Shown here piece after piece: positions 10,685 to 12,747 of a stretch of 24,572 bases of DNA; within the stretch, counting starts at the first letter, position 1; every line of letters starts with the position of its first letter. The notes under the pieces were generated by a model, which was given only the letters and a program-made list of their open reading frames with translations, did no database searches and was not told the DNA's origin. The translations under genes and the position numbers were made by a program. The stretch comes from a virus. Location of the stretch: IMG/VR virus record IMGVR_UViG_3300022725_000007, positions 1-24,572 of that record; one strand, given 5' to 3'.

Positions 10685-10717
10685 CCGAAGAAAAGTGTAG
10701 TTGACAGGGAAATATAG

Positions 10718-10746
10718 TTGACCCGGCACATACGGTGCGCTAGAAA
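10718..10746 (+). promoter_or_regulatory. Cassette promoter candidate (sigma70-like)
   Basis: TTGACC (10718-10723), a 17-nt spacer and TAGAAA (10741-10746) form a good sigma70-like promoter with 5/6 and 4/6 consensus matches. An 8-nt direct repeat TAGTTGAC at 10698-10705 and 10715-10722, offset by 17 bp, overlaps its -35 element and could be an operator pair. A promoter in the middle of a late operon is unexpected and supports an independently expressed cassette. Confidence 0.5.
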
Positions 10747-10821
10747 TTCAGGTGCCGAGAAGGCGACCCCCGAAACCGCGTCAACGGTTGATCGGGGGCC
10801 TGAACCGAAACCTGAATAGCG
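10738..10821 (+). ncRNA. Foldable leader: nested hairpins before the cassette genes
   Basis: Complementary arms are nested. CCCCCG (10767-10772) pairs with CGGGGG (10793-10798), and AACCG (10774-10778) pairs with CGGTT (10785-10789), around a CGTCAA loop. GCC (10754-10756) can pair with GGC (10762-10764). ATTCAGGT (10746-10753) pairs with ACCTGAAT (10810-10817), and CGCT (10738-10741) with AGCG (10818-10821). Together these give a three-way-junction-like fold. The outer arm overlaps the promoter -10, so the full fold would exist only in read-through RNA or DNA. The inner hairpin would be in the cassette transcript. Confidence 0.45.
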
Positions 10822-10923: not shown

Positions 10924-11679
10924 ATGGCGATGAAGAAAGCAGAAAGCACCATTGAAATTCCCCCCATTCATCGGGGCGAAATCATCATCAGGATCATCGG
11001 GCAGACACCGATGTTCATGAACCGGATGGCCGCGAAGGCCAAGCAACAGCTTCTGGTAGGGGGCCGAAAGAAAACGACGGCGGACAAGGCCAAAATCAAG
11101 CATGACCCGCTGGCGGAGTATCGAGACAGCATGGAGCGATACCCCGGCGATGGCCCAACTCGTTTGGCAATGCGTGTCGTGGCGCTCAAGGCGGCAATGT
11201 GCACGGCGGCGCTGGAGACGGCGGGCATCACCAAGACAAGCGCGCAGCGTCTTCTGTTCATGCCGGGCGATCTTGTCCCGCTCTACGGCACGCCGCAACT
11301 TCGCATGGACGTGGTTCGCAGCGCGGACATCAACCGCACGCCGGATGTCAGAACGCGGGCATTCTTGCCGAGGTGGGGCGCTGAGGTCAGGGTGCAGCAC
11401 ATTCTGCCGCAGCTGCCGACTTCCAGCGTTTTGACGCTCGCCGCCAATGCCGGCATTCTCGTTGGCATCGGGGACTTTCGGCAGGAAAAGGGCAAGGGCG
11501 CGTTCGGCAGTTTCCGGGTTCTTGGCGAAGGTCAGCAAGATGACGAATGGGATGATCTGATCGAGAACCACGGCGCGACGGCGCAGGCCAAGGCAATCGA
11601 CGATCCCGAGTTTGCCGACGACGATACAGCCGAGTTGATGGAGTACTTTGGCGAAGAATTCGCGCGGAGGGCTGGTTGA
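10924..11679 (+). CDS. Cassette protein A, unrecognised; RAMP/Cas7-like features
   Basis: I chose ATG 10924 (251 residues) because GGAG lies 9 nt upstream. An in-frame ATG at 10846 has AAGGAG only 3 nt away and would add 26 unconvincing residues. I do not recognise a named family. Near the start is a predicted strand, GEIIIRIIGQTPMFMNRM, like the first strand of RAMP proteins ('i.G.tPl.m'). A lysine-rich loop follows (KAKQQLLVGGRKKTTADKAK). Towards the end AAGILVGIGDFRQEKGKGAFG looks like a glycine-rich RNA-binding loop before a strand (SFRVL). The C-terminus is acidic. These features suggest an RNA or nucleic-acid-binding protein, but it is a weak by-eye match. The gene shares one base with the next and is followed by the GGCNN array. 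Confidence 0.72.
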   Translation: MAMKKAESTIEIPPIHRGEIIIRIIGQTPMFMNRMAAKAKQQLLVGGRKKTTADKAKIKHDPLAEYRDSMERYPGDGPTRLAMRVVALKAAMCTAALETAGITKTSAQRLLFMPGDLVPLYGTPQLRMDVVRSADINRTPDVRTRAFLPRWGAEVRVQHILPQLPTSSVLTLAANAGILVGIGDFRQEKGKGAFGSFRVLGEGQQDDEWDDLIENHGATAQAKAIDDPEFADDDTAELMEYFGEEFARRAG

Positions 11680-12167
11680 TGGCACGTTTCACGAAGGCTC
11701 TGCGCCAGCGGATACTGGATGACTTCACGCGCCAGAACAACGGATGGTTCGATCCGCGCGCATTCGTGCTGCATGTGCGAGACACTGGCCCGGACCATCC
11801 GGCCTACGGCTGGTTCGAATGGGATGACGCCAAGGCGGCGGAGGAGCATCGTGTCTGGCAGGCCCGGACGTTTGCTCAGGGATTGCGTATCGAGTTCAAG
11901 GTGGAGACTGTCGAGCGCGGCTCGTTTACGGTGTCGGCACCTCAATTCGTGTCGCCCCTTGATGCGCGCGCGAGCGGCGGCGGCTACTTTCAGACCGACC
12001 CGACAGACGCGGAGCATATGGCGGAGTTTGCGAAGCAGGCCGCGCAGCATCTTCGCTGGTGGCTTCGCCGGTATGGGGCGGTTGTGGTTGCCGCCGGCGG
12101 CGATCTGGGGGCGCTGACCGATCTCGCTGAGGCGCTTGAGGGACCGAAGGGGGAAGCGGCGGCCTGA
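11679..12167 (+). CDS. Cassette protein B, unrecognised
   Basis: The protein has 162 residues from ATG 11679, whose A is the last base of protein A's TGA stop; GGAGG lies 8 nt upstream. This tight coupling implies co-expression. The N-terminal third is FDPRAFVLHVRDTGPDHPAY followed by GWFEWDDAKAAEEHRVWQAR, an aromatic-rich block. The middle is beta-rich with FTVSAPQFVSPLDA, and the C-terminal part is helical (HMAEFAKQAAQHLRWWLRRY). I cannot assign a family. There are no membrane segments, no signal peptide and no clear catalytic motif. The stop codon is followed one base later by the first unit of the GGCNN array, so the array is effectively the gene's 3' untranslated region. Confidence 0.72.
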   Translation: MARFTKALRQRILDDFTRQNNGWFDPRAFVLHVRDTGPDHPAYGWFEWDDAKAAEEHRVWQARTFAQGLRIEFKVETVERGSFTVSAPQFVSPLDARASGGGYFQTDPTDAEHMAEFAKQAAQHLRWWLRRYGAVVVAAGGDLGALTDLAEALEGPKGEAAA

Positions 12168-12700
12168 CACGGCAGGCGGGGCTTGGCCCGGCCCGGCCGG
12201 GCGTGGCGAGGCGAGGCAAGGCGCGGCAGGCATGGCCTGGCGAGGCTCGGCACGGCAAGGCATGGCAGGCGGGGCTCGGCGTGGCAAGGCAGGCGGGGCG
12301 CGGCAGGCATGGCGGGGCTGGGCAAGGCGCGGCCAGGCTGGGCGCGGCAAGGCAAGGCAGGCGGGGCAAGGCACGGCAGGCATGGCCTGGCGAGGCAGGC
12401 GGGGCGCGGCAAGGCGTGGTTCGGCTTGGCTAGGCCAAGCAGGCGGGGCGCGGCTGGGCACGGCAGGCGGGGCAAGGCACGGCTAGGCCAGGCATGGCAC
12501 GGCTAGGCAGGCAAGACAAGGCACGGCGTGGCGGGGCAAGGCAAGGCAGGCAAGGCTTGGCTTGGCTGGGCCGGGCTCGGCGGGGCAAGGCAGTCGCGGC
12601 CTGGCGCGGCCCGGCATGGCAAGGCAGGGCTTGGCGTGGCAAGGTAAGGCAAGGCAGGCAAGGCAGGGCTAGGCATGGCGCGGCTAGGTAAGGCAAGGCC
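12168..12700 (+). repeat. GGCNN pentamer array of about 105 units
   Basis: The 533 bp are built almost wholly from units GGC plus two variable bases. Nearly all 16 dinucleotides occur as the variable part (AA, AC, AT, GG, GC, GT, GA, CT, CC, TT, TC, TG, TA and others). A 4-base unit, GGCA, recurs and often comes just before GGCGG or GGCAT. Rare exceptions include GGTTC, GGTAA, GACAA and one 9-base unit near 12590. A 21-base identical segment starts at 12225 and again at 12375, exactly 150 bp apart. The constant GGC with free variable bases is unlike a simple slipped microsatellite and implies selection on the triplet and its spacing. It lies between the cassette genes and the terminator, so it would be transcribed. 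Confidence 0.95.
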
Positions 12701-12719
12701 GAAACGGTTAAATTGAAAG

Positions 12720-12747
12720 AAGGCGGCACCTTTTGGTGCCGCCTTTT
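12720..12747 (+). terminator. Strong intrinsic terminator ending the cassette
   Basis: AAGGCGGCACC (12720-12730) and GGTGCCGCCTT (12735-12745) form an 11-bp perfect stem with a TTTT loop; T residues follow (12744-12747). On the opposite strand TTCTTTC follows the hairpin, so it may act in both directions. It stops cassette transcription just before the tail terminator gene. Confidence 0.85.

What the first reader, a model, noticed from the sequence alone, without database searches (positions are those of the whole stretch)
12168..12700. GGCNN array: constant triplet with variable 2-nt spacers, over 100 units
Over 533 bp the GGC triplet recurs every 5 nt (sometimes 4) while the two spacer bases take nearly every possible value. 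Replication slippage would give identical units. A fixed triplet with free spacers instead implies that something counts or binds GGC at a set spacing. The known parallel is the TRAP-type RNA target, where (G/U)AG triplets are separated by 2-3 nt and bound by a ring of subunits. Each unit is half a B-DNA turn, so a DNA-binding role is also possible.
Basis: partly seen in the sequence, partly recalled or inferred. Interest (0 to 1): 0.85.

Follow-up and report, generated by a model that had tools for sequence, protein, structure and literature searches.

The report
Phage RNA-guide array (VIPR system)
The GGC-plus-two-variable-bases array is the guide-RNA array of a VIPR system, a recently described CRISPR-related machinery that phages use against rival phages, in which the variable base pairs jointly spell out a gapped DNA target.

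Summary
In detail: about 109 units of GGC+NN at 12171-12701, mostly every 5 nt, using all 16 dinucleotides. It is not an unknown TRAP-like target. It is the guide array of a VIPR system (bioRxiv 2026, PMC13142463). The gene two upstream (10924-11679) encodes a Vipr protein. A profile of 60 homologues finds a single PDB sequence, SUSP1 Vipr (E 2.4e-5). The predicted fold is Cas7/Csm3-like (RAMP). An accessory gene (11679-12167) and a hairpin terminator complete the cassette.

Most relatives carry same-strand arrays, cut into guides by a 4-nt unit (GGCA here, GGCG in a sister clade). Guides from several relatives match conserved phage DNA-metabolism genes under the published 1-nt-skip rule: a Sak4-like annealing ATPase, a helicase and a RuvC-like resolvase. 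The matches are in codon register and stop at the punctuation. One 8-unit guide gave at least 120 hits in IMG/VR, 119 of 120 in one gene motif. Three patterns of equal length from the window gave 3-24.

No secure target was found for the window's own guides, and no expression or binding was tested. "Free" spacers, TRAP and the B-DNA role do not.

The parts
10924..11679 (+). vipr gene: Cas7-like RAMP protein, 251 aa from ATG 10924 (the ORF is open from ATG 10846); conserved GxGDFRQEKGKG loop
   Evidence: Profile of 60 homologues hits only SUSP1 Vipr 36pp in the PDB, E 2.4e-5; hhalign with the SUSP1 protein, probability 96%, E 2.3e-9; AF2 pLDDT 89; top folds are Csm3/Cas7; phrog_4652
11679..12167 (+). 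vap: accessory protein, 162 aa; its ATG overlaps the vipr stop (TGATG)
   Evidence: tblastn relatives in 70 loci, 55 aligned; AF2 pLDDT 93; no PDB fold match; not detectably related to the gene beside SUSP1 Vipr; phrog_15946
12171..12701 (+). vrRNA (guide) array, about 109 GGC-NN units, 14 of them 4-nt units
12175..12224 (+). guide segment 1, 10 units: GG TT CC CC CG GT GA GA AA GC
   Evidence: one phage (3 contigs) matches 19/20 nt in register, suggestive only
12229..12263 (+). guide segment, 7 units: AT CT GA TC AC AA AT
12306..12355 (+). guide segment, 10 units: AT GG TG AA GC CA TG GC AA AA
   Evidence: no exact hit in IMG/VR
12398..12437 (+). guide segment, 8 units: GG GC AA GT TC TT TA CA
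12466..12505 (+). guide segment, 8 units: GG AA AC TA CA AT AC TA
   Evidence: 24 scattered IMG/VR hits
12510..12544 (+). guide segment, 7 units: AA AA AC GT GG AA AA
12549..12588 (+). guide segment, 8 units: AA TT TT TG CG TC GG AA
12593..12652 (+). guide segment, 12 units, beginning with GTC after GGCA (the punctuation form of the sister clade)
   Evidence: 5 scattered IMG/VR hits
12720..12745 (.). hairpin AAGGCGGCACC-TTTT-GGTGCCGCCTT, a likely (two-way) terminator closing the cassette
   Evidence: scored on the - strand; the + strand has a short T run at the end of the stem

Best explanation
The array is the guide-RNA (vrRNA) array of a phage VIPR system. The cassette vipr-vap-array-terminator would be transcribed rightward. 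Vipr subunits, each a Cas7-like RAMP protein, would line up along the RNA, one per GGC triplet, and present the two following bases for pairing. Successive NN pairs then read a DNA target written NNxNNx, with one skipped base per pair that usually falls on the codon wobble position. Each guide runs from one 4-nt unit (GGCA) to the next, because that unit shifts the 5-nt register. Bound DNA of a rival phage would be repressed. Shown here: anatomy, homology, fold, array conservation, and the skip-1 code plus targets for relatives' guides. Taken from the preprint: RNA expression, RNP formation, DNA binding and repression. Inferred: that this copy is active and that the 4-nt unit delimits guides.
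For: Preprint PMC13142463 describes GGY/NN vrRNAs, Vipr and the 1-nt skip rule. The profile of 60 homologues finds only SUSP1 Vipr in the PDB, E 2.4e-5, and hhalign to the SUSP1 protein gives E 2.3e-9. The AF2 model (pLDDT 89) matches Csm3/Cas7 subunits, VIA Z up to 10.0. Arrays sit on the vipr strand beside vipr in most of the relatives fetched. 119 of 120 encode S[DE]KTGKPD[IM]RG or its close variant in register, and nearly all also match guide units left out of the pattern. Three patterns of equal length from the window gave 3, 5 and 24 hits. In the local set, exact hits were 326 at skip 1 versus 0, 0 and 2 at skips 0, 2 and 3; part of the 326 is by construction. Other guides found the same gene and a helicase at skip 1 only. 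None of the 14 units beyond the punctuation matches the target's main next codon. A guide of the window's own GGCA clade (L006) hits a RuvC-like resolvase in 57 of 118 rows.
Against: No secure target was found for the window's own guides. Five of its segments have only 2-4 units, so this copy may be partly degraded or rearranged. The repeated 3' tail of SUSP1-type vrRNAs is not seen. The vap is not detectably related to the SUSP1 one. No expression data are available. The array RNA folds somewhat better than shuffles (z -3.2), which a guide does not need.
Confidence: 0.94

Rival explanations
1. The array is a degraded or non-functional VIPR array: same origin, but its guides no longer match living targets.
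For: Five of 13 segments have only 2-4 units; there are internal duplications; AA is over-represented (22 of 97 units); no secure target was found.
Against: vipr and vap are intact and align over full length. 104 of 111 triplets are exactly GGC, a register that would erode without selection. Only four of its guides were scanned in IMG/VR, and a guide without a database match is not unusual.
Confidence: 0.2
2. TRAP-like regulation: an RNA target bound by a ring protein that counts triplets and controls the neighbouring genes.
For: A fixed triplet with 2-nt spacers; the array is most likely co-transcribed with the genes.
Against: The protein beside it is a Cas7-like RAMP. The spacers carry target information. 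Arrays in relatives reach about 500-600 parsed units and are cut into guides, far more than a TRAP ring needs (own knowledge).
Confidence: 0.02
3. Coding or simple-sequence repeat: a low-complexity G/A/R-rich protein, or microsatellite expansion.
For: Overlapping ORFs run partly through it on both strands.
Against: No frame is open across the window array, and only 11 of 52 arrays of 300 nt or more have an open frame throughout. The spacers take all 16 values and 4-nt units break the frame.
Confidence: 0.02
4. The array RNA silences mRNA by antisense pairing rather than guiding to DNA.
For: Targets lie in coding genes.
Against: The guides matched to the Sak4, helicase and RuvC genes have the same sense as the mRNA, so they could pair only with the template DNA strand. 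The preprint shows dsDNA binding by SUSP1 VIPR.
Confidence: 0.03

Closest known systems
VIPR systems (PMC13142463, preprint 2026), SUSP1 / P. fulva type II
   Same: Vipr RAMP protein with a GxGD-R loop, one accessory gene, phage-borne, GGY/NN repeats on the vipr strand, 1-nt skip targeting of rival mobile elements (the last for relatives of this copy).
   Different: SUSP1 has separate vrRNAs of about 100 nt, each followed by an invariable tail (pattern seen; tail from the preprint). Here the guides are contiguous, with no tail seen between them and a 4-nt unit between guides. The vap is not detectably related. Vipr is longer (251 vs 195 aa).
Other VIPR types of the preprint (staggered arrays with overlapping vrRNAs, hammerhead-interspersed arrays, single vrRNAs)
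   Same: The staggered type may be exactly this architecture.
   Different: Could not be compared: the supplementary figures were not readable here.
Class 1 CRISPR effectors (Csm3/Cas7 backbone)
   Same: Fold of the backbone subunit, VIA Z up to 10.0; a periodic interruption of guide pairing (preprint).
   Different: No CRISPR repeats, no other cas genes seen in the window, non-contiguous guide code.
TRAP (trp RNA-binding attenuation protein) targets
   Same: Triplets at 2-3 nt spacing read by a multi-subunit protein.
   Different: No TRAP-like protein was found beside the array; the array is long and its spacers carry information.

Membership tests
VIPR system | Vipr: RAMP-family protein homologous to SUSP1 Vipr | tested here: met
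   sequence; fold
VIPR system | Non-coding array of GGY/NN tandem repeats beside vipr, same strand | tested here: met
   most homologous loci have one too
VIPR system | Accessory (vap) gene next to vipr | tested here: met
   Conserved neighbour: tblastn relatives in 70 loci. Which of vap1-6 it is could not be told; it is not detectably related to the gene beside SUSP1 Vipr
VIPR system | Carried by a phage or provirus | tested here: met
   IMG/VR record; flanked by head and tail genes
VIPR system | NN pairs specify targets by the 1-nt skip rule (for this Vipr family) | tested here: met
   Guides of relatives L045, L046, L047, L052, L071 and others
VIPR system | The window's own guides match natural targets | tested here: inconclusive
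   Best case segment 1, 19/20 nt in one phage; the rest at chance level
VIPR system | vrRNA transcribed and bound by Vipr; DNA binding and repression | not testable with these tools
   Needs RNA-seq, pull-down and a reporter assay
VIPR type II (SUSP1-like) | Separate vrRNAs of 9-16 units, each followed by an invariable 3' tail | tested here: not met
   Contiguous array with no interrupting sequence between segments; SUSP1 for comparison
CRISPR-Cas | Identical repeats separated by unique spacers, with cas operon | tested here: not met
   5-nt units instead; the genes beside the array are vipr, vap and phage structural genes
TRAP target | A TRAP protein gene that reads (G/U)AG triplets | tested here: not met
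   The triplet is GGC and the adjacent gene is a RAMP; a TRAP gene elsewhere in the phage cannot be excluded from a 24.5-kb fragment

The most novel reading that the evidence does not exclude
In this Vipr family a 4-nt unit inside an otherwise 5-nt periodic RNA is the punctuation of a tail-less guide array. It shifts the register by one base, so an RNP can form only between two such units. That would be a comma code for contiguous RNA guides. Independent phages aim such guides at the same few DNA-metabolism genes of rivals (Sak4-like, helicase, RuvC-like).
Probability: 0.55. Interest if true: 0.72.

Novelty: new member of a known kind. Interest (0 to 1): 0.6.

Why it matters
A blind reading of raw sequence reached a guide array of a system reported only months earlier. 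The family found here tests the published decoding rule on sequences and targets found independently, and the rule holds. It gives concrete natural targets (Sak4-like annealing ATPase at three sites, helicase, RuvC-like resolvase) and suggests how tail-less arrays are divided into guides. This makes the array-reading question directly testable in alphaproteobacterial lysogens such as Methylobacterium, Bradyrhizobium or Aureimonas.

Tried and rejected
Rfam: no family in the window. DNA search of 50,697 phage records: no match. Pfam, NCBIfam and PADLOC: no family for vipr or vap above cut-off. Guides against the loci around vipr only: no signal at any skip length, which fits targets lying in other phages. 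Whole-guide pattern of L083 in 266 Bradyrhizobium genomes: none. L009/L011 guide core: one chance-like hit. Window segment 1 in 240 alphaproteobacterial genomes: 2 hits versus 3 with the reversed control. L006 guide in 79 Methylobacterium genomes: 3 hits, none in the RuvC gene, about the chance number. Treating the window's 4-nt units as 1, 2 or 3 target bases, or dropping them, gave no clear excess over the reversed control. Accessory protein: no PDB fold match from Foldseek or VIA; absence of a match does not show a new fold. sigma-70 promoter scans: nothing upstream.

Full report
OBSERVATION. The array is real and non-random. GGC occurs 103 times in 12171-12700, with 84 spacings of 5 nt and 12 of 4 nt. 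Markov sequences of the same dinucleotide content give about 6 five-nt spacings, at most 16. All 16 dinucleotides occur between the triplets (entropy 3.69 bits) and neighbouring identical units are not in excess. A dynamic-programming parse gives 111 units from 12161 (two of them inside the end of the upstream gene): 97 five-nt and 14 four-nt units, 13 of the latter GGCA.

SETTING. The window is a 24.5-kb virus record with terminase, portal, capsid, neck, tail and tape-measure genes (some of these names rest on reading the ORF translations). The array follows two overlapping genes: 10924-11679 (phrog_4652, unknown) and 11679-12167 (phrog_15946, unknown). The hairpin at 12720-12745 follows the array. 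The cassette sits between a tail-completion/Neck1 gene and a tail-terminator-like gene. In relatives it lies elsewhere, for example beside portal, tail-fibre, tape-measure or anti-repressor genes, so it behaves like a mobile accessory cassette.

IDENTITY. A literature search for repeats of this kind found a 2026 preprint on VIPR systems (PMC13142463). It describes phage-encoded Vipr RAMP proteins with guide RNAs of alternating GGY/NN, read on DNA by a 1-nt skip rule. Tests here: 80 IMG/VR loci and 9 genome loci encode relatives of 10924-11679. A profile of 60 of them finds exactly one PDB sequence, SUSP1 Vipr, E 2.4e-5. hhalign against the SUSP1 protein gives 96%, E 2.3e-9, over the GxGDfR region. 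The AlphaFold model (pLDDT 89) matches Csm3/Cas7-type CRISPR subunits in the top rows of Foldseek and VIA (Z up to 10.0, about 150 residues aligned). In SUSP1 the same GG[CT]NN search finds runs on both sides of its vipr gene.

ARRAYS IN RELATIVES. Most homologous loci have GGY-NN arrays on the vipr strand. Long arrays are cut by a 4-nt unit: GGCA in the window's clade, GGCG followed by GTC in a sister clade. Intervals between them are commonly 39-64 nt, that is 7-12 five-nt units. Between homologous guides of close relatives, differences by position in the unit are 12, 46, 53, 20, 39 (490 units; none of 10,624 unrelated pairs passes the same identity cut), so the NN positions change less than triplet positions 2-3.

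TARGETS AND THE CODE. Guides in L046, L047, L071 and L075 share eight NN pairs (one base differs in L046) while many of their triplets differ. Searched with one free base per pair, the eight gave at least 120 IMG/VR hits. 119 of 120 encode the motif S[DE]KTGKPD[IM]RG (A for S in a few) in codon register. The units left out of the pattern also match: GA before in all 119 (L071 guide) and GG GC TA after in 116 (L047 guide). The gene is a Sak4-like ssDNA-annealing ATPase (AAA_24). Equal-length patterns from the window gave 3, 5 and 24 rows. In the fetched loci, other guides match the same gene at a second site (L045, GKYETVFID) and a nearby helicase (L052, KSTMIQM). Guides of L037 and L054 match a third site (VWFVGIL) with 1-3 mismatches. 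With guides used to choose the loci left out, at least 8 units and at most one mismatch, skip 1 gives 110 hits against 9, 4 and 3 at skips 0, 2 and 3; 27 of the 110 are the two window guides that were also scanned for. None of 14 units beyond the 4-nt punctuation agrees with the target's main next codon, so each punctuated segment appears to be one guide. A guide of the window's own clade (L006, Methylobacterium) matches the C-terminus of a RuvC-like resolvase in 57 of 118 listed rows; with only 14 specified bases many of the other rows are chance. These guides are in the mRNA sense, so they could pair only with template DNA.

THE WINDOW'S OWN GUIDES. Four segments were scanned in IMG/VR. Segment 1 matches one phage (three contigs) at 19 of 20 bases, in register, antisense, in a 976-aa frame. 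By a rough estimate about one such match or fewer is expected by chance, so it is only suggestive. The others are at chance level. Several segments have only 2-4 units, so this copy may be partly rearranged.

ACCESSORY PROTEIN. The 162-aa protein is conserved beside Vipr (tblastn relatives in 70 loci) and modelled with confidence (pLDDT 93). It matches no solved fold in the searches made and is not detectably related to the gene beside SUSP1 Vipr. Its role is unknown; the preprint says vap proteins appear to act on DNA.

VERDICT. The array is the guide array of a VIPR system: a new member of a known kind. The contiguous, punctuated layout may correspond to the preprint's 'staggered' type, whose figures could not be read. 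Transcription, RNP formation and activity of this copy are inferred, not shown.

Noticed in passing
window 10690-10800: Between the neck gene and vipr lie two TTGACA/TTGACC-like boxes and an inverted repeat CCCCCGA...TCGGGGG; possibly the cassette's promoter region. Consensus scans found nothing.
   Followed up: partly
L009 and L011 arrays (same metagenome 3300043313): Two phages of one sample share many guides with single NN changes, as if sampling a common guide pool or tracking target variants.
   Followed up: partly
L063 5392-7894 (also L064, L058): Very large array, about 509 parsed units and 45 four-nt units; L058 parses to about 612 units.
   Followed up: no
L002 2355-6834: Genes before and after the VIPR cassette match the N-terminal and C-terminal parts of one portal profile (phrog_2271), so the cassette may have entered a portal gene or lie beside a split portal.
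   Followed up: no
L087 10768-10830, L088 10750-10817, L014 4750-4817: Short extra arrays between vipr and vap, beside the main array after vap; other loci have arrays before vipr.
   Followed up: no
L266 10280-10783: A contig fetched as a carrier of the RuvC-type target itself encodes a vap relative, so targeted phages may carry their own VIPR.
   Followed up: no
phages collection, e.g. Gordonia phage UmaThurman 32792-33316, Mycobacterium phage Brocalys 32963-33478: Distant Vipr relatives (about 33-35% identity) annotated as hypothetical proteins in cultured actinobacteriophages; arrays not checked.
   Followed up: no
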